Positions 19,155 to 47,898 of a DNA stretch of 64,000 nucleotides are shown here, piece after piece. The translations under genes and the position numbers were made by a program. Origin of the DNA: Talaromyces rugulosus (lineage: Eukaryota > Ascomycota > Eurotiomycetes > Eurotiales > Trichocomaceae); contig NC_049565.1 of the NCBI RefSeq assembly GCF_013368755.1, positions 4,774,001 through 4,838,000 on the forward strand, read 5' to 3'. Positions within the stretch are counted from its first letter, which is position 1, and each line of letters starts with the position of its first letter. Under the pieces are notes generated by a model. The model ran no database searches and was not told the DNA's origin. It was given only the letters and a program-made list of their open reading frames with translations.

Positions 19155-20851
19155 TTACAATCCGTCATCTGAATCCTGCCCTTCCAGTAATGAAGGGCTG
19201 TCTCGTTTCCAAGGCATCTTAGAGGCGGAAATCCACGGCCCACTGAAGATACGTTCGATTTCTTCCACGCTGCATCCTGCAATTTCAGGAACAAGAAGGT
19301 ACACGTATAAAAGAGCCACAACGCACCAGGCCGCGAAAAAAATAAACGCGCCCCAGTTATCAGTCCGCGACAGCAGCGATGGCAACCCAAAGGTCATGGC
19401 GTAATGGAACAGCCAGTGGAAAGTCGAAGACAATGCGGCGCCAAAGGATCTAATGCGGTTTGGCCATAGCTCTCCACCAAAGACATACGGAAGAGTGAGA
19501 AGACCTTTTTAAGACATTAAAAAAAAATGACCTGTGGTAATAGAGTGATTGACTTACCAATAGTATATCCAAAGGCGTGTAGGAATATCGATGCAAGTGC
19601 TGCCTCTCCGGCAGCATGGGATGCACCATTCTCTTGTTGGAACTTGAGGTATATCCCAAGATACAAATCCGATATCATCTGAATTGAAATACCGAGAAAC
19701 AAAGAATTTCGGCGTCCAAGGGCGTCGATGAAGAAAAACGACGTGAATATCGCAAAGAAAAACTTGGACATAGCGTACATGCCGTTAAGAAACAGGTTTC
19801 GAGTAGAGCTTCCGGCCAGGCCGAGAACCTGCAGGATAGGTATGAAATAATTTGTTATTGAGTTTCCGCCTGATAGCTGTGGGAATGCGTATAGTATCAA
19901 GGCCTGTTGAACGCGACGTAGGTTCGACGGTACTGTAAACGTTTCCTTGATACAGCCGACAATCTTGAAAGAAGAGCCTTGACCAAACTCGGAAGTCTCG
20001 TTCTCCGACCGGATAGATTCAGTGATACTCTGAATCTCTTCGTGGAGCAGAGGATGATCAGCTTGCAGGCATCGAAGCCTGACGAGGGATTCGACGGCCT
20101 TTTCATGCTGATCAGACATGATAAGCCACCGGGGCGACTCGCAAAGAAAGAAACTAGCCACTACCCAAAGGAACATAAACACACAAGGGGCAAGCCACAC
20201 AACCTGGTATTGTAGTCTGCTTGATTCAATGTGTAATTCCACACCGTACACGCAAAATGTCGACACCATCAAGCCTACAGTCATTGATACTGAATACCAT
20301 GCAGTCAGCAGCCCGCGGATTTCCGTCGGGGCGATCTCGACAATTGAAATAGGGCCGGTGACGCCTAATGCCCCAATTCCGAGACCAGATATAATTCGAG
20401 CGGCATACAATCCGGCCAACCCGGGGCTGAACATGGAAACAAGTTGCCCAATAATCCAGACGGCGCTATACAGACGAAACGACCACAGGCGGCCAATGCG
20501 GTCATTGATAAAGAATGACAGAGCAGCACCGGCTGCGTCGCCAAGATAGACGAGAGAAACAATATTCCTGACTGCACCTGCGTCGGATCCGGAGCTAACA
20601 CCAAAGTGGTCTTGGAAACCTGCAAGCGATGCCACTGTGGATGCCGAGCCTTGATCCCATGCTGTAGATATCGTCAATAAGTTTGTTGATGAGACGATAG
20701 ACCTTGACTCACTCAAAGGCACGGCGGTGGCCGCGTACATCAACGACGAAACCAGCAGACTCGGGTTGAGGATAACCTCCCTCGGTAATGATTTAATCTT
20801 CCTCCCATAGGTGGCCACGGTACTCCTACTGAGGATTTCTTTGACGCCCAT
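19155..20851 (-). CDS. MFS sugar-porter family transporter
   Basis: Exons on the minus strand are 20851-20713, 20661-19558 and 19504-19155, giving 530 aa. Sugar-porter signatures are present: WDQGSASTV after helix 1, FFINDRIGRLWSF for the loop 2-3 motif, CESPRWL at the central loop, IDALGRRNSLF in loop 8-9, and a degenerate PETKG end (LLVPEIAGCSVEEIERIF). Twelve hydrophobic segments fit a plasma-membrane importer. The 51-bp intron at 20662-20712 is a multiple of three without a stop, so retention would insert 17 residues; the GTGAGT donor and the fit to the family argue that it is spliced. Two CGG-N5-CCG sites lie about 200 and 415 bp upstream, matching those of the oxidase, dehydrogenase and regulator genes. 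The substrate is unknown. Confidence 0.9.
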
Positions 20852-21048: not shown

Positions 21049-21059
21049 CGGTAATTCCG
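21049..21059 (-). promoter_or_regulatory. CGG-N5-CCG site 1 (transporter promoter)
   Basis: The plus strand reads CGGTAATTCCG; on the minus strand it is CGGAATTACCG. It fits the consensus CGGAAWTRCCG shared by six sites between 21 and 28 kb. It lies about 200 bp upstream of the sugar-type transporter start. Inverted CGG triplets with a fixed spacer are the known binding geometry of Zn2Cys6 dimers. Confidence 0.6.
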
Positions 21060-21264
21060 AAAAAGCTTCACGATAAACTGGATTGCCCCTATTGGCTGTA
21101 TATACCAGCTTGTTAGCCACGAGGCACCACTTTGATTAACAGTGGAGAGCCCTTATCGAATAAATACAAATGCCATGAGATCATAAAGTTTGTGGTGCCG
21201 GGCTCGTTCCCCTGCTTTTCGTGGACGGCATCTCGACTTTCTCGGCTTTATCATGCACCTCTTT

Positions 21265-21275
21265 CGGAAATACCG
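21265..21275 (+). promoter_or_regulatory. CGG-N5-CCG site 2 (transporter promoter)
   Basis: CGGAAATACCG differs by one base from the identical triplet of sites near the oxidase, dehydrogenase and regulator. It lies about 415 bp upstream of the transporter start. The other flank of this spacer is the 3' end of the membrane-protein gene, so the transporter is the only plausible target here. Confidence 0.6.
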
Positions 21276-21708
21276 GCTGATATACTTAGTTTATCACCTT
21301 TGCATTGGGCAGATTCGATTCTTTTCCAAGGCTGGAAAAGTTCCGCATATTTTACTTGGGGGCAAGTACATGTATAATATATCGACCTGGAAACATTTTA
21401 CTATATAATTTCTTACTGAGCGAGCTATTCCTGCTTTTCTGATAATTCTGAATATCACTGGGCTCTTAGCTACATAATTTCTTAGCGATATTATGTAGCT
21501 ATTTATATGTGCCATTTCTACCTAACTCTGAATTGTTTCAGAGCCAAGTCGTCTCTGATTGTAAAGGATAGAAGCACGCCCTCACAAAATTTATTAAGAT
21601 CTTAGTTATTATTTGTTTGAACACTGAAGACCGTGTTTTTTTTGTCAAAATGGACATTTGTTAGAGAAACATGTGTGTGCGTGCATGGTGTTCAATAAAC
21701 TAGGGAAA

Positions 21709-23310
21709 TTATTTATCCCTACAGTTCCACATGACCGTTATCTTCGAAAGAACAAGAGCCACTTCCAGTGTGTATTTTGTAAAGAAAGCCCAGCTAGTAG
21801 TGAGGCAGAGCAGACAGCCAATCGATAGTAGCATAACAACGGCCAATGCAGAAATTGCCACCAACACACGCTTTCCTAATACGTAATCCTCGTCCACATA
21901 GTGTGGAATCAGTATAGCAGATCCAGAAATAGAAGCGAGCGTACAGATCCGCCATGCCTGTCTCTCAGCAGGTGTAGGGAAAGGAAAATTCCAAGCCGCA
22001 ATATGAATGCCACAGTACGCAAGAGCTGCAAATAAGCCAAGTAAATTGGCAAACCGATAGCGACGATCCTCTTGCTCGCTAGACGACCCTGCGATCGTTA
22101 TGTCAAACCCTTTGAAATTATTGCTTTTGCGAGGCAAAATCTCATCAAGGTAGTATTTCAGAGTCGAATCTTCATTCTTGGTTTTATCTGACGACGACGA
22201 TGGTGGTGGTGATGATGGTGGTGGTGATGATGGTGGTGGTGATGATGGTGGTGGTGATGATGGTGGTGGTGATGATGGTGGTGGTGATGATGGTGGTGGT
22301 GATGATGGTGGTGGTGATGATGGTGGTGGTGATGATGGTGGTGGTGATGATGGTGGTGGTGATGATGGTGGTGGTGATGATTGTAATGCTGATGATGGTG
22401 GTAATGATGGGACATTGATAACAATCGGTATTGTCACATCTTTAGGTTTATACCACCATAATGCATAGGTAAGAAGTGCACATAAAACATATGCCACTGA
22501 CGCCAGTTCAATAGGTGTCACATGAAGACCATAAGCAGGTCGTGTGACCACGTTAATCGCAAACCAGGTAGTTTGGCAAACGGCAACAAATTTGGCAAAG
22601 CTATCTGCTTTGCTTCGACGTTTGATATCTTCTATTTTGATTCGAGGAAAGTTTACTCGACCACTTTCAAGTAGCTTCACTGGACTGTCGTTTCTTAGGA
22701 TTGAGTATTCCTTTTCATCTTCTGTTTGAATTGCGAGGCCACCCATTGTAGTGAAGAACCCATGGGCAAGCGTCCAGTCCTCGGCATATGCACTTTCTTT
22801 TATTGAGCTTTGCTGGGATGCCTCGGGTTTTTGTTCTGGTTCAACTGCAACACTGCAAAGCTGTGTAACGTCATTTCCCAAAGTTTCCTCTTCACGTTCG
22901 ATTTTCTGGCTCTCTGATGGTGGATCCTGGATCGAGTGTTGCGACTCAACATCACTATCAGCTGACAGGTTCAAGTTATCCAGTTTAGACTTTTTAAAGC
23001 TTTTGACACAAAACCGAGCTTCGAAGTACTGGTCTGTGGCTATAGCTAATGTCCACTCTGGAAGAAGAATAGACAAAATAAAATGTTTAACTTGTCGCCA
23101 GAAGATGCGCGACTCGGAATCCTTTGGGTGCGCTACATTCAAATGAAGGACAGTCCAGGTGCAGGCGAAGATAGTCGAAAAACAGGCCCATAGGATGTCA
23201 AATGATGACCTGTCGTTTCCTCCGGACTGCCAGCCTTCTTGTGTTGTGTTTTGTGAGAGTGCAACAGCGGGGAGTACCGAGAGAAGAAAACCAAGTAAAA
23301 ATAAAGACAT
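21709..23310 (-). CDS. Predicted membrane protein with tandem PPSSP repeat
   Basis: This is a single open frame of 533 aa. The N-terminus is a signal peptide (MSLFLLGFLLSVLPAVALS), followed by ILWACFSTIFACTWTVLHLNV. That block marks a large family of fungal membrane proteins of unknown function. Several more hydrophobic segments follow (for example LASVAYVLCALLTYALWWYKP), and there are three to four near the C-terminus. Between them lies a Pro/Ser repeat encoded by 12 copies of a 15-bp unit. The protein has no recognised catalytic residues. Its start lies 329 bp from CGG-N5-CCG site 3, which sits in the divergent promoter shared with the FAD oxidase, so co-regulation is possible. The repeat length probably varies between strains. 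Confidence 0.75.
   Translation of the reverse strand: MSLFLLGFLLSVLPAVALSQNTTQEGWQSGGNDRSSFDILWACFSTIFACTWTVLHLNVAHPKDSESRIFWRQVKHFILSILLPEWTLAIATDQYFEARFCVKSFKKSKLDNLNLSADSDVESQHSIQDPPSESQKIEREEETLGNDVTQLCSVAVEPEQKPEASQQSSIKESAYAEDWTLAHGFFTTMGGLAIQTEDEKEYSILRNDSPVKLLESGRVNFPRIKIEDIKRRSKADSFAKFVAVCQTTWFAINVVTRPAYGLHVTPIELASVAYVLCALLTYALWWYKPKDVTIPIVINVPSLPPSSALQSSPPPSSPPPSSPPPSSPPPSSPPPSSPPPSSPPPSSPPPSSPPPSSPPPSSPPPSSPPPSSSSDKTKNEDSTLKYYLDEILPRKSNNFKGFDITIAGSSSEQEDRRYRFANLLGLFAALAYCGIHIAAWNFPFPTPAERQAWRICTLASISGSAILIPHYVDEDYVLGKRVLVAISALAVVMLLSIGCLLCLTTSWAFFTKYTLEVALVLSKITVMWNCRDK
22201..22380. repeat. 15-bp minisatellite, 12 copies, coding for PPSSP units
   Basis: The unit TGGTGGTGGTGATGA (plus strand) repeats perfectly over 180 bp and stays in frame in the membrane-protein gene as PPSSP. 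Degenerate copies flank it on the distal side. Because the unit is a multiple of three and lacks stop codons on either strand, it also creates spurious open frames (poly-His, Val/Met and Asp/Gly). Confidence 0.95.
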
Positions 23311-23638
23311 CGCTACATGTATGGCAGTGTGGTCACCTCATGTGCTGGGCCAGATGGAAAAAATAAACACTGAACAATTTGTACATATCAACGTGGTCAC
23401 CTTTCGAGTCTCAGCTCGTCAAAGCGCTACCTTCGGCTGAGAGATCGTCGAGCAGAGCAGCCAATTAAAAGACCTACTGACCAGAATCGCGCCTGCTATT
23501 ATTAGTATCAGGCTGTTGGTTTTAAATGTTTAGGTAATACTAGATTAGGCAGTGAGCCCAACGCTAGAACAGATTGAGTATAGATAAAATATAACTTCTC
23601 CTTATTTTCAACAGTGGGCCCGGGATCCGCATGGTTCA

Positions 23639-23649
23639 CGGAAATGCCG
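23639..23649 (+). promoter_or_regulatory. CGG-N5-CCG site 3 (oxidase / membrane-protein promoter)
   Basis: CGGAAATGCCG lies 177 bp upstream of the FAD oxidase start and 329 bp upstream of the divergent membrane-protein start. The same 11 bases recur exactly upstream of the dehydrogenase (inverted) and upstream of the Zn2Cys6 regulator. Confidence 0.65.
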
Positions 23650-23825
23650 TGCAATAATACCATTTAGACATCGCCATCACGGCAAATCCGTATTCTCTCC
23701 GAGAATTTAATAATGTAATAGAGTTATCGCAGATATAATCTCGGCTCGTAGAACTTATTTTAAACGCATTTCTGCTTATCACAACTTGCGATTGATGCAA
23801 CATTGAACCATTACGCCTGGCGAAA

Positions 23826-26006
23826 ATGGCTAACCCTGAGACTGACGTGATTATCATTGGCGCCGGGGTGTTTGGGCTAAGCACTGCCCTTTGGCTCGCT
23901 CGCAGTGGCTACAAAAATGTTACTGTATTCGATCGATGCGCCTTTGATAAGAACTACTATAACCCTGCAGATGGGTGTGACGGGGCGTCGGCCGACATCA
24001 ATAAGATTTTTCGAGCAACGTACGGGGAGCAACTGCAGTAAGTAGATGACCAAAAAAGTATTTGTAATCATTTGGGTAAGATGAATAACTCATCACGCTC
24101 CTTAGCTCCCAAGACCTGGCTCTTGAAGCCAGAGATATATGGCTTGAGTGGAATCAGTCCATTAAAGAGAGCGATCCGGCCAACTTACCCAAACCGCTCA
24201 CTCCTGAAGATGAGCTTTTGACAATCTGCGGTGTCTATCACCTCGCAGATGGCCCTGAAATGATCCCCCGTTATGTGGACAATCTGAAAGCAATGGAAAA
24301 GACTGCTCCGAGCTTTCGTGACCTACAGTTCCTCAAGGTACGAATAGCGCCCAGAAATTATGGATGTTGGTTTTAACTCTCTTTTAGGGAAATTCTTATG
24401 ATGAATGGCGGGCTAGTAGGCTAGGCTCGGAATGGGCTAAAAAGTATCACCTTTTTGACAAGTTCAAGGGTGGTGCTACGAACGGATTTCTGGACGCGGG
24501 TTCCGGAATCACCTTGGCTGACAAAGTGAGATTGAAACATAATTTCTTATTTCCAAATACTAACTTGTCAATGTAGGCCTGTGTATATGCTCGGTATCTA
24601 TGTGAACAGGCCGGGGTGAAGTTCGTCTTGGGGCGACCTCATGGTGAACTTGAGGAATTGATCACAGAACAAGCTGGTTCTCAAAAGCGAGTGACAGGAA
24701 TTCGAACAAAGGACGGCCTGAGTCACTCGGCCGGACTCGTTGTTGTTGCGTGTGAGTATATTTGTGTCCTAACATTTTATAACTTTAAAAATCTAACGCA
24801 TGTAACCAGGCGGACCTTGGACATCATCTGTTCTTCCGGAAGCTCACCGTTCCGTGGAAGCCACGATGGGAACGGTGATGTTTGTGGACATTCCAAAGGA
24901 CAGAAAAGACCTCAGAGAAAAATTTCACCCAGACAACTTTCCAGTCTGGCGGTTTATACAAGGGGATGGAGAGGGGCAAGTGACATTTCCCGTCTCTGTT
25001 GTGCTTATACTAACCAATCCATTTCATTTAGATCGTATGAAGGAGGTGGATTTCCTATCACGAAAGAAGGGCGATTGAAATTCGGATTTCGTGCCCGCAA
25101 GGTATTAATTATCTTTTCCCGGTTGGAAAATAATGCTAACATTCTCTACCAGTTTACAAACTTTCAAGACCACCCCACACAAAAGGATATGTAAGTTCAA
25201 TTTGACAGTGTACCAGACTGGATAAGCCTGCTAAGCTGCATTTCTAAACCATTAGCCGCATCTCAACCCCGCGAACAAAGTACAGTCCACAGCCGATCGA
25301 CACAGTGCCTTCGTATGGACTGGAGCTCATGAAAAACGTCATCGGAGGGTTGTTTCCGGAATTGAGGGAGATTGGCTTTACAGATAGCCGAGTGCGTTTA
25401 CCATATCTGAAATGCTATGTGTTTTACTAACGTACATTCAAGTTGTGCTGGTACACAGACAGCATTGATAATGAAGTGAGTATATTCTATCCTGAAGATA
25501 TGGAGGTAGCACTAACTTTCTAGTTCGTGGTCGACTATGTTCCTGGCTACTCTGATTCGCTGTTCATTTGCTCTGGTGGCTCGTAAGTTATTGTAACATT
25601 GAAATTGCCGTCGAACCTCTTCTAACTCGTCGTGCTTAGTGGTCACGGATTTAAATTCCTTCCAATCCTTGGAAAGGTAAGTTCATGCCATCAGCCTGTG
25701 GATTGTTGAGCATATGCTAATCTGGGTCTTTTCTAGTACGTCAAAAACCAGCTAGAGCGCGTTCCTGATCAGTTCACGTCACTTTGGAAGTGGCGTACTG
25801 TTGAGGAAGGCCAGAAATGCAACGGCCTCGAGGAAGGAGAAGCCGGTCCTCGCGAGATGTCGAAACTCCGCTTGGCAAAGTGTAAGTAAACCGTATTATT
25901 TTCTCGGGGATTGCGTTAATAAGGAATTATAGCCGAGGACTTTAAATTTGTGGATAGAGAGAATACCTTTTACAACCTTTCTTCAGGGCCACGATCGCGC
26001 CTGTGA
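23826..26006 (+). CDS. FAD-dependent amine oxidase (MSOX/amadoriase/saccharopine-oxidase family), peroxisomal
   Basis: Thirteen exons: 23826-24037, 24106-24337, 24388-24525, 24577-24751, 24810-24975, 25032-25101, 25153-25190, 25256-25391, 25443-25475, 25524-25582, 25640-25676, 25737-25881 and 25933-26006; 504 aa. The N-terminus has a DAO-type FAD fold (DVIIIGAGVFGLSTALWLA). Later come IFRATYGEQL, the LCWYTDS segment (Cys about 391, where this family attaches FAD covalently) and SGGSGHGFKFLPILGKY. The last three residues are SRL, a type 1 peroxisomal signal. Relatives oxidise secondary amines (sarcosine, saccharopine, pipecolate, fructosyl amino acids), making hydrogen peroxide, which suits the peroxisome. 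Intron 5 (24976-25031) appears to use a GC donor. The gene is followed by the dehydrogenase on the same strand and shares its promoter motif. The substrate is not determined. Confidence 0.88.
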
Positions 26007-26318
26007 GAGGGTGGTAAGATGTTGAGATGGGAATGATTGATTAGGTGGGCAGATCATGCCTTTAGTGGCTTGTTTATTGCTCTTTTAAAACTACTTTAGA
26101 CTGCAAAAATAGTCGGAATTGATTTAATTATATAACATTGATTTGGTTTCAACATAAGTATACCTTTAAAAAAATATCCGGTTTTGTCTCGTCAACTTGT
26201 CCATTGTAAATCGATTCTACTCAATATTATTATGAAACAAAGACACTACAAAGACTTCGGAATTACCCGAACACAAATAAACTCGGAATCCATTTACATA
26301 CATATTCAAACAGTTATA

Positions 26319-26329
26319 CGGCATTTCCG
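26319..26329 (-). promoter_or_regulatory. CGG-N5-CCG site 4 (dehydrogenase promoter)
   Basis: The plus strand reads CGGCATTTCCG, the exact reverse complement of sites 3 and 5. It lies 155 bp upstream of the dehydrogenase start. A near copy, CGGAATTACCC at 26258-26268, lacks only the last base of the consensus, and a lone half-site TCGGAATT lies at 26113-26120. Confidence 0.65.
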
Positions 26330-26483
26330 AAGAATTGCGTTTGTGGACATTCAATGCTGTCAATAAACACTGCACATACTTTACATAAACGTACGGGTTT
26401 CCTGCAAAGCATGGCTTGGATAAAACTTGATCTATCGTCGTCTTGAAAACATATTGGAACAGACCCAAGGTGCAAAGCTGAAG

Positions 26484-27572
26484 ATGACTCAAAATCCCTC
26501 CAAAGTTGCAATTCTAGGAGCCGGTGCAATTGCCTACGCAACCGCAGCTATATTGTGTCGCGATGGTCACGATGTGACCCTATGGTCCCCTTCCGGACGG
26601 CGTACAGAAAAAATAGCAACCGGCGAACGACTGATAGCCAAAGGGGCTCTCGTCGGCCAATTCCATCCACGCATTTCTACAAGCTGCGCAGAAGCCCTGG
26701 CCGGTGTAGACGCAGTCGTGATCGCAGTGCCGGGCTACGCCCATCGTCATGTTCTTGATGCTGCCGCGCCTCACCTCCGTCGTGAGCAAGTGGTGATTTT
26801 CAGCTCCCACATATCCCTTTCTGCGCTCTACCTCGACAAATTACTACGCGAAAGAGGTGTTGTGCTGCCTATATGTGCCCTCGGAACGACTCTTGCCACT
26901 GGGCGGCAGCAGCCAGACCTCAACTCAGTCACCATCGGCTCTATTCGAGCACGCGTTGACGTGGCCATTGTACCAGAACAAGAAACTGCTCGAGGACTGA
27001 GGGTCTGTCGCAGTTTATTCGGTGATCGGTTTGTGCTACGACCCAATATCCTGGCCGTATCTCTCAGCAACATCAACCCGGAAACACATCTGGCCATGGT
27101 CTTGTGCAACCTCACGCGCATGGAGATAGGCGAGAACTGGGGCCAGTGGAAGCACGTTACGCCTGCGGTGTCCCGGCTGCTCGAAGAGCTTGATGCCGAG
27201 CGTCTTGCCATTGCCAAATCGTTTGGTCTTACGGTGCGCACGATACACGAGCATTTCCACTTGTCGTACAACTTGCCCATGGGTCCACTCTCCGAGATGC
27301 TGAAACCGCTGCAACAAGAAACAAAAGATGTAAAGGGTCCAACCACACTGGACGCACGCTACGTCACGGAGGACGTGCCCTTTGGACTTGTACCGATAGT
27401 TCGTTTGGCGGAACTTGCCGGTGTTGCGGCGCCTCTCCATGAGAATGGCGTGCGGTTACTGTCGGCGCTCTATGGTAGAAACTTTGTGGAGGAGAATGAT
27501 ATTTTGCCAGAGCTTGGTGCGTTATCAGTGCCGATGTTGGTCGGCGAGTCTGCGCGGGACTCGAGGTTGTAG
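26484..27572 (+). CDS. NAD(P) octopine/nopaline dehydrogenase-family enzyme, peroxisomal
   Basis: This intronless gene encodes 362 aa from the ATG at 26484 (MTQNPSKVAILGAGAIAYAT). The N-terminal Rossmann fold carries GAGAIA and HDVTLWSPSGRR. The C-terminal half is the opine dehydrogenase helical domain, with a candidate catalytic His at residue 202 (NPETHLAMVLCN) and a second His-rich stretch, TIHEHFHLSYN. Known members reductively join a 2-oxo acid to an amino acid to make opines, or run in reverse. The protein ends in DSRL, so it has the same SRL peroxisomal signal as the amine oxidase 478 bp upstream. Both enzyme families act on secondary-amine C-N bonds, which suggests one pathway. The direction of reaction and the substrates are inferred only at family level. 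Confidence 0.87.
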   Translation: MTQNPSKVAILGAGAIAYATAAILCRDGHDVTLWSPSGRRTEKIATGERLIAKGALVGQFHPRISTSCAEALAGVDAVVIAVPGYAHRHVLDAAAPHLRREQVVIFSSHISLSALYLDKLLRERGVVLPICALGTTLATGRQQPDLNSVTIGSIRARVDVAIVPEQETARGLRVCRSLFGDRFVLRPNILAVSLSNINPETHLAMVLCNLTRMEIGENWGQWKHVTPAVSRLLEELDAERLAIAKSFGLTVRTIHEHFHLSYNLPMGPLSEMLKPLQQETKDVKGPTTLDARYVTEDVPFGLVPIVRLAELAGVAAPLHENGVRLLSALYGRNFVEENDILPELGALSVPMLVGESARDSRL

Positions 27573-27826
27573 CTATGCATGAGATTATCTAGCAGGTTAT
27601 AAGAGAAATAATGCAGATAACTTTAACGTTCCAATGGTCTTAGCATTAATACATGTTCCTATACCCATGAACTTTACATGTTGGTTCAGGTTTGGGGTTA
27701 TCCAGGCCGGGATTAAACCCAGCATTATACCTATGGTGAATCTGAACTTCAATTTCTTGACATTATCATATTTATCTGCTATCATGATTAATTATCTCTA
27801 TCTCTATCGTGGATACAGACCGGTTG

Positions 27827-27837
27827 CGGAAATGCCG
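27827..27837 (+). promoter_or_regulatory. CGG-N5-CCG site 5 (regulator promoter)
   Basis: CGGAAATGCCG is identical to site 3 and inverted relative to site 4. It lies about 255 bp beyond the dehydrogenase stop and about 550 bp upstream of the first ATG of the Zn2Cys6 regulator. Confidence 0.6.
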
Positions 27838-27883
27838 AAGAGAGATCGGCATTGCTCCGTTTCTCGGGGCATCTCCGTGGGTC

Positions 27884-27894
27884 CGGCAATTCCG
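27884..27894 (-). promoter_or_regulatory. CGG-N5-CCG site 6 (regulator promoter)
   Basis: The plus strand reads CGGCAATTCCG; the minus strand is CGGAATTGCCG, fitting CGGAAWTRCCG. It is 47 bp beyond site 5. Further CGG and CCG triplets lie between the two, making a dense cluster at 27821-27894 that would suit autoregulation by a Zn2Cys6 protein. Confidence 0.6.
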
Positions 27895-28388: not shown

Positions 28389-31300
28389 ATGCACCTTCAG
28401 TCTATCAAGATGGAAGAATCAAGCCCAATGGAAGAAGTTATCATGGAGCATGAGCGCAGTATTCCTAGACAACCCCGATCTCGCCCGGCCAGCACCGGAC
28501 TCCGGCGAAGCACCAATGCTTGTACCTTTTCTGTCCCTTAAGAAATTAAAACACTTGGGTTAATTTGTTCAAGGTCGACGCTGCAAACGCAAAAAGATCA
28601 AATGCTACTACAATGGCGAAACCAATCAGTGTGCTGCGTGTTCCAAGTCATGTTCAGGTAAACACTTATTACGTGTCTGGTTTATTTATTTTCTGTGTCG
28701 CTAATGAGATTGACAATCCAGATTGTCTTTTTGACGTCCCCCCAGACGGTGTTTTTAGGGGCCATGCGTAGGTTTTGACTACTTGAATACTTGTCTGTGC
28801 CAAAGTTAAGATTGTTTTGCTACAGATACGTTACAACCTTGGAAGCACGAGTGCAGAGCCTGGAACTCCAGCTTCGCGCTACCAAGACTCGACGAGCTGA
28901 ATCGCAAATGAGGGACAGTTTGCGGAATTCCAATGCTCATGGTACGACAAATATTGAGCCAAACCCTACCACAAACACTGCACGCTCCCATGCTCACCAG
29001 GATCAGCGAAATGCACAACAACCAGTGGATTGGTCTGGGCAGAACCGGCGGCCAGTGAGACAAGAAAGTTCATTTCAAAATAATGTAAGGCAGTCATTGC
29101 ATCAATATTACGAGCGACAGATCCTAAAATCGAGTAGGATGTTGGAAATACGACAGATGACTTTTCAGGAAATTTATCAGGAAATCTCATCGAACCCTCC
29201 GGCGAGCCGCAAAGATCAAGCTCCGAACTCGTCGTTCTTAACATGCTCTACAACAGCGCTGTTCCTTCAGACCCGGACATTGACAGCTTGCCCAGCCTTC
29301 CATCCAGTAAAACCGCCAGGAAACTTGTGGATGCGGTTTTTCTGTATGTTCAAGCACGGTACTGCATCGTCGACTGGGCACAAGTGCGCGAATGGCATCG
29401 AGATCGAGAGTCTCTCGCATACCTATCCAATGACGCTCCAATCGCATCGCAAACTGGTGAATACCAAACTTCAATTCTTTCAATCTATGCTCTTGCAGAG
29501 ACACTGATGTCTATACAGGAGCCTATTTCATCTGGATTATCTACGCTATCGGCGCCCGTTTCGTGGCAAATCCCGAGCATTCGTCAGAGGTACTTGAAAT
29601 AACCATGATTTAGCAAAAACAAGTTTCTAATTGCCAGGCTTATTTTGCTCGTGCTCGATGTTACCTGTCAGCGGTCATGTCTTTGCAGAATCTGGAAACA
29701 GTGCAAGCCTTGCTCTGTCTTGTACAGTACTATTTCCGAGCTTCAGTAAGCAGCACCAACACTGAATCTTTTTCGAGATTTACTAACAAATCCCAAGGAA
29801 CCTCCAATCTGGTTTGTTCTTTTCTTTCTTACGTACGCCAGCTACTTATACCTAGACAGGCATCTGGTAGGCTTTGTCTTGCGACTCTGCGTTAAACTTC
29901 GATACCATCGCAAAGATACATCACAAAACCTAGATGCGTACACTATTGAGCTTCAAAAGCGGTTTTTCTGGTGTGCATATTGTTTTGACCGGTTTGTCTA
30001 TTTTTATTGAGATATTTGTATGTATCAAGTTGACGGAACGGAATAGATGTGCCTCGATGCTATCGAAGCTGCCGTTTGGAATTAGCGATTTGGATATCGA
30101 TGTAGAGGTTGGTCATTCTTTTGTGTCTTGCTTTGTGTCTTGCTTTTGTGTGCTGCATATTGCTAACAAATGTAGACGCCGGTTGATATTGAGGTTACAT
30201 GTACAGATCAAGAAAAGATCCGTGAACTTCAAGTCAAGCAGGCAAATGGCGAGTCCAGCAGTGACGAGGGAGCAATCACGACGGTATTTTCTTTTCTGAT
30301 CAACACAGAAACATAAAAACTAACTGACTAGATGACTGCCGCTCTCCACCACTTGCAAGTATACCGTATCAGATCGAGAATCACGTAACAATAAATCCAA
30401 CCCAAACAATCTTGATATACATAGTATATAGACTAACAACGAGCAGGACAACCTTCATGGGCCCCAACGCGCGAGTACCCTCGTCCAGCGACGTCGCCAG
30501 TCTTCTCTCCGAACTCGACGAATGGAAACAGCAAGAACCGCACCAGGACTCCCGGCCTCTACCTCACCAGGGCGCCGACAGAGTGCGCGCAAACTACCTG
30601 CAAGCAGTCCTCCTCTTGATCCGGCCGGTGCTGATGAGCGACACGGTCGACCCGGATCTCGTCGAGCTCTGCGTGAACTTTGCGGTAGACGCCTGCGAAG
30701 TATGCCGCCGTTTCCTTCTAACCAATTAATAGTATCTGCTAATAAAAAGGATACGTGATATAGAGCGCAAAAACACTCAGCCTCAACCCGCAAACCCACG
30801 CGGACCGCATCACAACCTACCACGTCTTCTACTTTGGCATGACCCTACTGCAATGCCTCGCCATCCAGCCCACAGCCCTAACGCCGCGCCGCGCCCACCA
30901 CGCCATCAGCTCGTGTCTGAGTGCATTAGCTATCTACGCACGCATGCTGCCCAGCGTGGCGCCGTTCTTGCATCTTTTTGAAATGCTCTCTGATCTGTTT
31001 GTGCGGAATGACCATGCCTCTGGGGAGTATCCCGTGGGCGAGGTGAGGAGGGTTTTGAATAAGATTGTGTCGAGCGATCCGTCCGAGACGTCGGGGTGTG
31101 TATTTTTTTTTTCCTTTCTATCTTTGTCTTTGCAGAATCAATCAATGGATGCTGAATGTTAGGGCTATGTAGGTTTTTACGGTCTCTTTCCGATCCCGAG
31201 ACTCGTCAGGGTATGTTTGATCCGGAAGACACATTCAGAACGGTACGTACATACACATACACATATACATACATACATACATATTATGCACATGTTTCAA

Positions 31301-31543
31301 TGTTATATCAACTGACAAACATACATGTTACAGACAATCCGCTACGACTCCATCCTCGACGGCCAGTCCTCCTCGGCCACCACGCTCGGCGCCGACCTGG
31401 ACCAGCGATGCCCGCTCGACATGTTCCTGGACGTGTCACCGCTGTACGCGCCAGACGCAGAAATGACGAATCTGTGGACGGGGCCGTGGCTGGATCCGTC
31501 GTCGGCCGAGTATGCCGAGTTGGCTGCTGCGGGGGTTATCTAG
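28389..31543 (+). CDS. Zn2Cys6 transcription factor with fungal_trans domain (candidate cluster regulator)
   Basis: Sixteen exons: 28389-28521, 28574-28657, 28722-28767, 28826-29133, 29181-29456, 29519-29589, 29638-29745, 29798-29811, 29860-29991, 30047-30107, 30176-30283, 30332-30384, 30447-30699, 30764-31095, 31173-31242 and 31334-31543; about 752 aa. A second in-frame ATG is at 28410. The zinc cluster spans intron 1 and reads ACRRCKRKKIKC, followed by CAAC and a final Cys. A short coiled segment (YVTTLEARVQSLELQL) could support dimerisation. The middle domain has the fungal_trans blocks WHLVGFVLRLCVKL and ELQKRFFWCAYCFDR. Such proteins bind paired CGG triplets, and six CGG-N5-CCG sites occur in this neighbourhood. 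Intron 4 (29134-29180, 47 bp) is the least certain junction; all others join in frame. Confidence 0.87.
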
Positions 31544-43454: not shown

Positions 43455-45321
43455 TCATATAAACAGCCAGTCAGTGCGCGACTGATCCAGCTCCTGAATC
43501 CAATCAAACTCGCCTCCACCCAAAGAAGAAGACCCTGACTGACTCCGCTCCTCCTGCTTCTGCCACATCATCTTCAACACACACGCCGCATTGTGCAGAT
43601 TAACACTACAGAAATCGTTCCACAACATATACAAATGCTGCAGCGTAAACACGCGTTGTTCCCGGTTCGAGCTCTCGGCGCCCGCGATGAACGTCGGCCA
43701 AATGGTGCATTTGAAATGCTCGTCGTCGGACCGGATCAGCGAGATATTGTGCACGAGCTCCTTTTCGACCGTGTCGCGGTCTTTCCAAATCTCGGCAGAA
43801 GAAGAATCTTCTCGGTCGAATCCAAACACGGACACGACCCGTCGCGCGTACAGGTATACAGCGGCCTTGTAGGCGCATGCCAGAGCCACTCGCTGGGATA
43901 TATCGGATAGCAGGAGATACGACTGCATCTCGCCAGCCCAGGCCACCGGGTCAAACGCGTCAATGTGTCGCAGAATTGCAAGCGGGGAGTCAGTAGTACA
44001 TGTCGTCGCTGTTGGCGAAGAAGGCGGGAAAGATAGCGAGTAGGCATAGCAGCCCGATGGTGTGTTGTTGTTGTTGCCGTAATTCGAAAAGCGCTGTGCG
44101 TGCACAAAGAACATTGCATCCAAAAGGTATGCCGGGCAGCCCACCCAGGCGGTTTTCTCAAGACGCTGGAGGACCGCCGCACCCATGCTTTGGGAATAAA
44201 AAGGTCTGGAGAGCACGCCCGGACGGGCCAGTGTCGAGCCCATGATTTCGGTGATTAGACAAGAGTCGATGACGAATGTGTCGATGCCTTCGGTCGTCGC
44301 CGAGTGGTGGTTGGCGGCGGTTAGCAGCAGTCTGTCTCGCAGAATGCTCTTTGCGCCCTCGAGATGGTACTTCCACGCCCCGTTGCCGGATTCAATCGCG
44401 TCCAGCAAGATCAAGACGAAAATGGCTGCAACTGTCCTGTCGTCGTTGCGCGTGGATGCGTGCGACACGTCTATGGATAGCTGGCGCAATGCACGTTGTT
44501 TCAGGCTCAAGAAGTGCGAGAATGCCTTGGCATTGACGGGCTGCGCTGAGAAGGAGGAGATAGCAGGCCGGCCAAGGGACATGATACACCCGGGGGTCTC
44601 TGTGGCTTCGATGGTGGATGACTGCGGGAATTGAAGGCCATTGTTGAACATGTATGCTTGATGAATCGCGCCGATCGCAGCCAGGGAGTCGGTCAATACG
44701 GCTGATTCGCCTATGTAGGGAATGAGCTCGCGGTAAGGATTGCGGACTTTGTCGTAAAGACAGAGTGCTTGGACACAGTGCAGGTTGACTAGTTGTTTGG
44801 CCGAGTCAATTTAGGGGTACTTTTAGGAATATCCATTCTTTATATAAAAAAGGCGTCTTACAGTGTGAGATGTACAACCTCGACAGTTTATCCATATCTC
44901 GAAAGAGCGGATCCACCAACGAGAACGAGGGAGACTCTGGAGGAAGCCGACGAACATGTACAAGCGCTCCATTATTGTTGTAGTATTTGGCCAGCGTTGC
45001 TTTAGGTAGTGCCTGGACCTGGACCTGCAGACCTCCATCGCCCGACAGCGCTGTGCTTTCGCACTGGGCCTGCTGCTCTGTCTGCTCTGAAGAACAATAG
45101 CCCATGCTCGCGCTACCCGGAGATTCCTGGTTTGTAGTAGTCACATCATCAAAGCTCAGTCCCATCATCTTCCCACGACTAGCCACGCCGCCCTTAACCC
45201 AGACCAACGGCTTCTGGTAGCCCAGACACTCCTTCCCAGCATCGCGGCATTTGCGGCAGGTCGGGCGACCGTTGTCGCAGACAATGCGGCGTCGGCGACA
45301 AGTGTAGCATCCTTTGGACAT
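43455..45321 (-). CDS. Zn2Cys6 transcription factor (second, unrelated)
   Basis: Minus-strand exons are 45321-44862 and 44788-43455, giving 597 aa. The zinc cluster is at the very N-terminus: GCYTCRRRRIVCDNGRPTC followed by KCRDAGKEC. A Gln- and Thr-rich linker leads to a fungal-specific regulatory domain that begins LFRDMDKLSRLYISHF across the intron and continues ESAVLTDSLAAIGAIHQA. This layout (cluster at residue 5-30, then the DUF3468-type domain) is common among pathway-specific regulators. It is divergent from the P450 across 2.6 kb. No paired CGG motif was recognised in its own promoter. A 12-bp inverted repeat lies about 280-360 bp upstream of its start. Confidence 0.88.
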
Positions 45322-47898
45322 TGTTCGATTAACGCTCCTGATTGTTTTTTTACCACAATCAGGACCGTGTCCTTATCGGGAACTGCAATGAAGCTGCTGC
45401 AACGTGACCGTCCACATTGGATGGCACAAATCTGCCGCCATCACCTAAATCGTCTATTTGACAAGAAGCCGTCTGCGATGGTGATGTTGAAGTCGGCGAG
45501 AAGTTGTCGTGGGCCAAAAAACGGTGCGGCTTGATTTAGTCCGCCACTGATGACTAAGATAATACCAGCCACATACATCTCAGCCACAGATATTGCCTTT
45601 TTAGGAAATTTGCCTGACACAATCAGATTAGTATCTTGATAAGACCATATGAGATGATCTGCTGCCTTTCCTAAAAAGCCACAATTTCTCCTCCTTCACG
45701 TAAGCACATCCTTCATCCTCTCAACTAGGGTGCCTCCAGATGTCGACACGCGAGATATCAGTTGACATCTATACATTGATGTAACCGTGCTGCAAGTTAC
45801 ACACACAAACCCTATTTATATAAAGATCAATTGTCATGGTTTCTGGATATAAGAGCTGGCCAATATTCTAGTGTCTTTTTGGTTAGTAGTTGTTAGTAGC
45901 TAGCATGGTAAGAATAGTATCACAAAACGAGTGGTGCGTGCTGTAAAAAATTTAATTCCGGACGAAAAAGGCCGGGCGAGGAGTTACTGGCTCGAAACAA
46001 CTTGAGAAAACAACAGAGAGGCTAGCATGCACCGCCATTCCTACAGTTCATGCAGACTAATATTAAACTTTGACGCCAATTGATCACGTATAGACAGGAA
46101 TTGTGCATGACGTGGTTCCGCTCGCATAGGATTCTTTTAAGGCATAGTCAAAGCCCCCAGTAAGCTGGTTTACGGGCTAGCGTTTGCAAGAAGGCCGCCG
46201 CGGATCTAGGACTCCGATTTTAGCGTTTAAATACGGCGTACGTACGGAAACTTACTCCGTAGTAAAGAACTTACTATTAACTATTATGTAGTGGCAGCTG
46301 CAATGTAGGACCCGTTTTGGCCCGGCGCAAGTTGACCGACATACAACGGCGATCTGCGGTGGAAGCTAAAAATGACCCTGGGCTTACATCTCAACTTCCT
46401 AATACTTCGAACAATGCCTGTACGGAACATTAGAAATAATTGCGCATGTAACCGTATTGGGTATACTTTGTGCGGCCTGAGGGATGAACTACCGGTACGG
46501 TGAATGCGTTAATGGTCCAACGGAACATTGAAGCAAATAGACTAAAATATCATATTGTTCTTTCTAAGAGGCTATTCTTACTACTTACATGACTTAAAAT
46601 AGGCAACACTTTGCGAGATGTGGTATATTCATCAGTCAATGTTACACAGCATTTAGTTTATATCAAACCAGAGTGGGTGGCACTGAATCCTTCCGTTTCA
46701 CCGGAGGATCGACGTTGTGAGACGAAGGAATCGCCTTCGGAATCACCTTCGAAACCGCGTATTGATTAGCGTATAGCCAAATATTGCATCCCCACGCCGA
46801 GGCTGTTTCACGACTCGGCCAATTATTCACATACAATGCCAAGGGAGCATCAATAATCGGTTCTCGGCAACAAAAAGTAAAATGTACCGTATGTAGCTGT
46901 TACGTACTCCGACTGGTACGTATATTAGTTTAATGCTGGAAAGCTAACAGGCACTAACAAAGTACAGGAAATCTCAGCAATACGAGGACGGGGCAAAGAG
47001 TTTTGATTCCCAGAGAAGATTGGCACAAAGTCTGTTATCCAGGTAACTTGTTGAAATCTTCCTGTTTTCGCAATTCCTCTCTTATAACGAGGTACCAAGG
47101 GTTACTTGTAGCGTAGAATCATACTTTAGATAAGGGATAGCGTTTCTTGGAGATCTTCTTCTAGCCTTCGCTAGATCCTTTTTTAAACTTTGTGGTATCA
47201 TTCTAAATCTATAAGATCTGACGGTCCGTGAAAATCTTAATTTCAAATTTATTATTTTTATTTTCTTTAATATTTAAATGTGCCAGAAGGGTCTGTCGAT
47301 GTTATTGATCGATGTATATATGGACGCCCAAATACGAGTAACCCTTTGTCGACATTGATCAAGTAAGCAGCATTTTAAGCTTGAGGACCTCTTATATAAT
47401 CGTTTATAGCTAGGGGTTACTATAAATCCGTGAGCTGCAGCTGTAACAAATTCATCTTTTCAGTTTCTCTTTCTCATGTAATAATAAGCTACACGAGCTC
47501 TAGACCGTGTCATACCACTTTCTGCTTACATCTCGTATCATTCCATAACTGGCAAACAATTGGAATAGCCCCTAGGGCTAGTGTATACCTTTCTTTTCAA
47601 GCTAAGAAATCCCCGCAGAATACTGATAACTCCGCTATTGATCTGAGTAAGCTCGTAATGTAAGCCATTCTTTTTCCTAATATTGTTTCCAACATCATGC
47701 ATCAAGTGGAGAGATCTCCTGGTCAAGGCTTGCAAATATTTGCACTAAGGTTGACTGTTTTGTTCTTAAATTGAATACTTTCCCTGTCCTCAACACTAAT
47801 AAAGGAACTTTGGTTTGAAATACACGAAATCCTCAATTTAACCCATAAAGGCTTTTTTTTTTTTTCAACCTGAGAGTTACAGTAATCAAACCTTCGTC
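45322..47898. other. 2.6-kb gene-free divergent spacer
   Basis: The spacer between the Zn2Cys6 gene and the P450 gene is AT-rich, especially 47200-47450. It has many short frames, none with domain-like content. A perfect 12-bp inverted repeat (CTTTTTAGGAAA at 45597-45608 and TTTCCTAAAAAG at 45667-45678) lies near the regulator. The size is large for this window. It could hide a degraded gene or mobile element, but I cannot identify one. Confidence 0.4.

What the first reader, a model, noticed from the sequence alone, without database searches (positions are those of the whole stretch)
21049..27894. Six copies of an 11-bp palindrome, CGGAAWTRCCG, mark a local regulon
CGG-N5-CCG sites lie at 21049, 21265, 23639, 26319, 27827 and 27884. 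Written on one strand they are CGGAATTACCG, CGGAAATACCG, CGGAAATGCCG (three identical), and CGGAATTGCCG; all six fit CGGAAWTRCCG. They sit only in the spacers upstream of the MFS transporter, the FAD oxidase (divergent with the membrane protein), the octopine-dehydrogenase-family gene and the Zn2Cys6 gene. A Zn2Cys6 dimer recognises exactly this type of inverted CGG pair, and the cluster encodes such a protein. Three identical 11-mers within 4.2 kb in promoters are very unlikely by chance.
Basis: partly seen in the sequence, partly recalled or inferred. Interest (0 to 1): 0.88.

Follow-up and report, generated by a model that had tools for sequence, protein, structure and literature searches.

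The report
Local switch for fungal amine-oxidation genes
In a soil mould, a small gene cluster that seems to take up and oxidise an amino-acid-like compound carries seven near-identical DNA sites in its promoters, probably bound by the cluster's own regulator, and one of the genes under these sites looks as if it came from a bacterium.

Summary
All six CGGAAWTRCCG sites are where stated (0.12 expected in the window); a seventh, CGGATTTGCCG, lies at 23680. In the four promoter spacers inverted CGG pairs occur seven times at spacing 5; in 3,000 dinucleotide shuffles no class of 42 (inverted or everted, spacing 0-20) exceeded three. The 35.8-Mb genome holds 70 sites; outside this cluster the closest two are 10.8 kb apart. 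The genome is Talaromyces rugulosus. The cluster encodes an MFS transporter, a FAD amine oxidase, an opine-dehydrogenase-family enzyme and an intact Zn2Cys6 regulator whose linker length is constant in 12 of 12 readable relatives, itself included. Regulator and oxidase are one or two gene tags apart in 8 of 9 comparable tag series. Best reading: an autoregulated pathway-specific regulon. Two additions: the dehydrogenase groups with fungal proteins inside mostly bacterial relatives, so is probably horizontally acquired, and has an operator; it and the oxidase both end in the peroxisomal signal SRL. Binding, expression and conservation of the sites in other species could not be tested. A solid new member of a known kind.

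The parts
19155..20851 (-). MFS transporter, sugar-porter type, two exons, 547 aa
   Evidence: model; PF00083 1.6e-52 on exon 1; NCBIfam sugar porter below its cut-off; 58% identical to the MFS part of a Cladobotryum protein that also holds a relative of the regulator
21049..21059 (-). site 1 CGGAATTACCG, 198 bp upstream of the MFS start
21265..21275 (+). site 2 CGGAAATACCG, 414 bp upstream of the MFS start
21712..23310 (-). membrane-protein-like ORF, divergent to the oxidase; membership of the regulon uncertain
   Evidence: open frame; no Pfam or NCBIfam family at E 0.001
23639..23649 (+). site 3 CGGAAATGCCG, 177 bp upstream of the FAD oxidase start, 329 bp from the divergent ORF
23826..26006 (+). 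FAD amine oxidase (DAO family), multi-exon, C-terminus SRL (peroxisomal type)
   Evidence: exons, last exon from the public model P0174 read on the DNA; PF01266 1e-31; nearest solved relatives fructosyl amine/peptide oxidases, then sarcosine oxidase; TRUGW13939_10185
26319..26329 (-). site 4 CGGAAATGCCG, 155 bp upstream of the opine dehydrogenase start
26484..27572 (+). opine-dehydrogenase-family enzyme, single exon, only match in the genome, C-terminus SRL, probably of bacterial origin
   Evidence: PF02317 7.1e-36; 1bg6 1.4e-39; one match in own genome; tree
27827..27837 (+). site 5 CGGAAATGCCG, 552 bp upstream of the regulator start
27884..27894 (-). site 6 CGGAATTGCCG, 495 bp upstream of the regulator start
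28389..31543 (+). Zn2Cys6 regulator, 16 coding exons modelled from the ATG at 28410 (749 aa); the public model starts 7 codons earlier at 28389

Best explanation
The seven CGG-N5-CCG palindromes are operators of the cluster's own Zn2Cys6 protein, which binds each as a dimer, one zinc cluster per CGG half-site, and switches on the MFS transporter, the FAD amine oxidase and the opine-dehydrogenase-family enzyme when a substrate is present. Two sites upstream of its own gene imply autoregulation. Shown: the sites, their placement, the intact regulator with CGG-contact lysines and a linker of constant length, and the conserved linkage of regulator and oxidase. Inferred: binding, activation, the inducer, and the pathway, most likely uptake and peroxisomal oxidation of an N-substituted (secondary-amine) amino acid, opine- or Amadori-like. 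The opine dehydrogenase is most likely a bacterial gene captured by this older fungal unit.
For: Sites. Each of the three structural genes has a site 136-198 bp upstream. Regulator: zinc cluster plus linker aligns with PPR1 and Gal4; the lysine pair between the second and third cysteines is present; that these lysines contact CGG and that the linker sets the spacing is stated in PMC4245848 (passages seen). From the sixth cysteine to the LE of the following LExR/K helix there are 18 residues in 12 of 12 rows with a readable cluster, the T. rugulosus protein included (31 rows looked at, 19 had no readable cluster, many being shortened models). Linkage: nearest regulator and oxidase tags one or two apart in 8 of 9 sequential tag series found in both lists. 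MFS and regulator in one Cladobotryum record, 58% identity of the MFS part. No second promoter set: tblastn of the five cluster proteins to 3-kb loci of all 64 outside sites found only two distant MFS genes (about 30% identical), with the site inside them.
Against: No binding or expression data. The nearest solved relative by sequence, PPR1, uses spacing 6 (recalled), not 5. Conservation of the sites in orthologous promoters could not be tested. Pfam's zinc-cluster model PF00172 was not reported for this protein. The regulator's sites lie about 0.5 kb from its start codon, further than in the other genes. Outside the cluster too the pattern is commoner than its reversed control (64 against 41); base composition may explain this but I did not separate it further.
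Confidence: 0.8

Rival explanations
1. The sites are operators, but of another zinc-cluster protein encoded elsewhere; the cluster's own regulator uses other sites.
For: Filamentous fungi have many Zn2Cys6 proteins with CGG half-sites (general knowledge); a second Zn2Cys6-type gene lies about 12 kb beyond the regulator, ORFs at 43458-45372.
Against: The sites cluster only here in the genome and include the regulator's own promoter; no exact site lies near the second gene.
Confidence: 0.13
2. Chance or repeat-derived motif.
Against: The consensus-free spacing test gives 7 against a shuffle maximum of 3; the flanks of the sites differ; all sites lie in spacers.
Confidence: 0.01
3. About the pathway, not the sites (so not exclusive with the above): the cluster is biosynthetic. 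The dehydrogenase makes an opine-like metabolite, as proposed for PCA4 of Trichoderma harzianum, and the oxidase tailors it.
For: PMC12855858 (passages and section 11 seen) describes an opine-dehydrogenase-family gene in a plant-induced cluster with a palindromic promoter motif.
Against: No synthetase or synthase among the genes next to the sites; a sugar-porter-type transporter and a peroxisomal-type oxidase suggest uptake and breakdown. Several Penicillium species with the oxidase and regulator show no opine dehydrogenase among the best 120 of 457 hits, a capped list reaching down to about 53% identity.
Confidence: 0.25

Closest known systems
Pathway-specific Gal4/PPR1-type Zn2Cys6 regulators of fungal catabolism (e.g. 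RhaR, PMC4245848, passages seen)
   Same: Zinc cluster, CGG-contact lysines, Fungal_trans domain, inverted CGG pair in a target promoter
   Different: Spacing 5 with an A/T-rich centre; RhaR and Gal4 use 11, PPR1 6 (recalled); no description of this gene set met in my searches
PCA cluster of Trichoderma harzianum (PMC12855858, passages and section 11 seen)
   Same: Opine-dehydrogenase-family gene in a small fungal cluster with repeated promoter palindromes
   Different: Its motif is YGHGSAADHTTSCDCR; no transcription factor identified; whether PCA4 and this dehydrogenase are close relatives was not tested
MSOX/pipecolate/fructosyl amino acid oxidases of the DAO family
   Same: PF01266; sequence relation to 6a6v and, over 390-435, to monomeric sarcosine oxidase; S-x-L tails in 13 of the 22 closest listed relatives, itself included
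   Different: Substrate unknown; the closest T. rugulosus paralogue in the list is 62% identical
CENDH-type opine dehydrogenase (1bg6)
   Same: PF02317; Asn198, His202 and Asp297 of 1bg6 align with identical residues (numbering counted by me, catalytic role recalled)
   Different: In a fungus, with an SRL tail and a CGG-N5-CCG site in its promoter

Membership tests
Gal4-type Zn2Cys6 regulator | Six-cysteine binuclear zinc cluster | tested here: met
   CRRCKRKKIKCYYNGETNQCAACSKSCSDC, CX2CX6CX8CX2CX6C; aligns with PPR1 and Gal4. PF00172 was not reported at E 0.001, though relatives P0003, P0014, P0017 and P0042 carry it
Gal4-type Zn2Cys6 regulator | CGG-contacting lysine pair between Cys2 and Cys3 | tested here: met
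   KK in CKRKKIKC; role from PMC4245848
Gal4-type Zn2Cys6 regulator | Fungal_trans regulatory domain | tested here: met
   PF04082 1.6e-23
Gal4-type Zn2Cys6 regulator | Binds CGG half-sites as a dimer | not testable with these tools
   only the sites and the domain were seen
Local autoregulated cluster regulon | Common site in the cluster's promoters including the regulator's, rare elsewhere | tested here: met
Local autoregulated cluster regulon | Sites conserved at orthologous loci | not testable with these tools
   no collection of fungal DNA open to me; one viral-contig scan for stray fungal sequence found nothing
Local autoregulated cluster regulon | Cluster genes respond to the regulator | not testable with these tools
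   no expression data
Opine dehydrogenase | PF02317 with the catalytic Asn/His/Asp of 1bg6 | tested here: met
Opine dehydrogenase | Opine-forming or -cleaving activity | not testable with these tools
   no assay
Peroxisomal protein | C-terminal PTS1 tripeptide | tested here: met
   SRL on the oxidase (public model P0174) and on the opine dehydrogenase; that SRL is a canonical signal is general knowledge; localisation not tested

The most novel reading that the evidence does not exclude
A bacterial opine dehydrogenase was captured by an existing fungal catabolic unit and domesticated twice over: it gained an operator of the unit's zinc-cluster regulator in its new promoter and a peroxisomal tail that puts it beside the FAD oxidase, giving a fungal pathway for opine-like compounds controlled through an unusual CGG-N5-CCG site.
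Probability: 0.45. Interest if true: 0.65.

Novelty: new member of a known kind. Interest (0 to 1): 0.5.

Why it matters
It gives a complete, testable regulon (one regulator, seven sites, three or four targets) for an uncharacterised fungal amine-oxidation pathway whose oxidase and regulator occur together in several Penicillium, Aspergillus and black-yeast genomes. It also offers a candidate case in which a horizontally acquired bacterial gene has been wired into a fungal promoter code and sent to the partner enzyme's organelle, which can be tested directly.

Tried and rejected
Chance was set aside by the consensus-free spacing tests. A wider regulon was looked for at the 64 outside sites: 50 of 64 lie in open frames of at least 100 aa (control positions 257 of 384); tblastn of the five cluster proteins to the 64 loci found only two distant MFS genes, with the site inside the matched stretch. 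Two paralogues of the oxidase (C1:4120255, about 60% by exon; C4:4154836, 38%) were fetched with surroundings: of 11 CGG-N5-CCG sites there none fits CGGAWWTRCCG. Bacterial neighbourhoods of the opine dehydrogenase were read for two of the 80 loci (L040, L063), as ORF lists judged by eye without a family search; they showed no shared partner. A viral-contig scan for stray fungal DNA found none.

Papers: CGG-N5-CCG in four spellings gave one paper, an incidental predicted site in the cdr1B promoter; bracketed spellings cannot be searched. Five exact 11-mers gave 19 papers, none about zinc-cluster regulation by title; none was read. The listings (15 of 601 shown) showed no paper on this cluster; that is not proof that none exists. 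PMC4575208 was seen as outline and abstract only.

Tree: window protein plus 118 of the 120 listed homologues (two of at most 320 aa dropped); the list was the best 120 of 457, from 7,998 candidates kept by the search; quick method, SH-aLRT only, midpoint root. Of the nine rows in the branch called fungal, the window, P0055 and P0080 are fungal by record and P0054 by 96% identity; P0069 lies on an unnamed 2.95-Mb contig; P0061, P0083, P0091 and P0109 come from unnamed metagenomes and were put in the group beforehand for tail or likeness, so they are fungal by assumption. The K/R-L tail comparison was made after seeing the SRL tails: 7 of 8 listed members of that branch end in K/R-L (P0061 does not) against 2 of 112 others; since the tail was among the reasons for grouping three or four of them, this is not an independent test, and only SRL is canonical.

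Locus-tag count: the nearest regulator/oxidase pair was taken in each series; oxidase paralogues elsewhere in the same genomes exist (e.g. NUU61_004455, N7470_009944). Cladophialophora's regulator is only 26% identical. Two JGI-type series (A. versicolor, Zasmidium) were left out because their numbers are not positional.
Full report
Observation. The window is G000:C5:4774001-4838000 of a 35.76-Mb, six-contig genome. The regulator and oxidase match TRUGW13939_10187 and _10185 of Talaromyces rugulosus at 97-98%, on a contig of 5,343,016 bases, the length of C5. The six sites are exact and are the only exact ones in the window. A seventh CGG-N5-CCG site, CGGATTTGCCG at 23680, fits the slightly wider CGGAWWTRCCG, which has 7 matches in the window and 136 in the genome, against 76 for its reversed control.

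Chance. Because the consensus was fitted to the sites, I tested spacings instead. In the four promoter spacers inverted CGG pairs occur 7 times at spacing 5 and at most twice at any other spacing from 0 to 20. With dinucleotide shuffles the mean at spacing 5 is 0.14, and the largest count over 42 classes in 3,000 shuffles was 3. Genome-wide, 70 matches exist; six fall in 6.85 kb here, and outside this cluster the closest two are 10.8 kb apart. The other 64 agree with the number expected from the window's dinucleotides (about 67) but exceed the reversed control (41). Of the 64, 50 lie in open frames of at least 100 aa (control positions 257 of 384).

Anatomy. From left to right: an MFS transporter (-), a membrane-protein-like ORF with a 15-bp repeat (-), a FAD oxidase (+), an opine-dehydrogenase-family gene (+), and the Zn2Cys6 gene (+). 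Sites lie 198 and 414 bp upstream of the MFS start, 177 and 136 bp upstream of the oxidase, 155 bp upstream of the dehydrogenase, and 552 and 495 bp upstream of the regulator's public start.

The regulator. My 16-exon model gives 749 aa with an intact zinc cluster; the public model is shorter (660 aa), but an Aspergillus glaucus relative of 741 aa matches 99% of mine. Zinc cluster and linker align with PPR1 and Gal4. The lysine pair that contacts CGG is present, and the linker is said to set the spacing (PMC4245848, passages seen). The stretch from the sixth cysteine to the following LE is 18 residues in 12 of 12 readable rows, its own public record included; its sequence is close in Aspergillus, Penicillium and Exophiala and looser in Lecanicillium and Akanthomyces. 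A constant linker suggests a constant spacing; that is inference.

Conserved unit. In 8 of 9 sequential locus-tag series found in both searches the nearest regulator and oxidase tags are one or two apart: T. rugulosus, Penicillium alfredii, hispanicum, argentinense, nucicola, chermesinum N7470, Exophiala spinifera, Cladophialophora chaetospira (whose regulator is only 26% identical). In the ninth, P. chermesinum N7468, only a 65% identical oxidase elsewhere is listed. In Cladobotryum the MFS (58% identical) and the regulator's relative are in one record. I infer that MFS, oxidase and regulator form an old unit; whether MFS lies there in the other species was not seen.

The newcomer. The opine dehydrogenase is single-exon and has one match in its genome. 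Among the 120 homologues listed of 457, the named fungi are P. angulare (81%) and P. capsulatum (66%); the other named ones are bacteria and most are unnamed. Nine rows, four of them fungal by record or near-identity and five so called by contig or likeness, form one branch (100) among the other rows. In P. capsulatum it lies three tags from the oxidase (N7492_002161 and _002158). Its promoter here carries site 4. The simplest story is transfer from an alphaproteobacterium-like donor, insertion next to the oxidase, and gain of the operator; whether the operator was already there or arose afterwards is unknown.

Function. The oxidase is nearest, among solved proteins, to fructosyl amine/peptide oxidases, then sarcosine oxidase; the dehydrogenase keeps the residues that align with Asn198, His202 and Asp297 of 1bg6 (role recalled). 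Both enzyme classes act on N-substituted amino acids (general knowledge). Both proteins end in SRL, a canonical peroxisomal tail (general knowledge); 13 of the 22 closest listed oxidases, itself included, end in S-x-L. I therefore think the cluster imports and oxidises an N-substituted amino acid in peroxisomes. The substrate is not known, and a biosynthetic role, as proposed for PCA4 of Trichoderma harzianum (PMC12855858, passages and one section seen), is not excluded.

Verdict. It is an ordinary kind of system with an unusual spacing and an interesting evolutionary addition. What is missing is direct binding and phylogenetic footprinting, both easy to do elsewhere.

Noticed in passing
22199-22402: 15-bp tandem repeat GATGGTGGTGGTGAT, 13.6 copies, in frame in the membrane-protein-like ORF, coding a PPPSS-type repeat.
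   Followed up: partly
26484-27572: Opine-dehydrogenase-family gene of probable bacterial origin with an SRL tail.
   Followed up: yes
26257-26270: TCGGAATTACCCGA, a palindrome of the CGG-N6-CCG type (PPR1/UaY-like, recalled), 62 bp from site 4; could be a decayed or alternative site.
   Followed up: no
43458-45372: A second Zn2Cys6-type gene (- strand; CYTCRRRRIVCDNGRPTCRKCRDAGKEC in the ORF at 44809-45372) without any exact site near it.
   Followed up: no
P0024 (Cladobotryum mycophilum): Public protein of 1265 aa named quinate permease-like joins a relative of the regulator and an MFS; probably a merged gene model.
   Followed up: partly
28389-31543: The public model TRUGW13939_10187 (660 aa) ends earlier than the 749-aa model read here.
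   Followed up: partly
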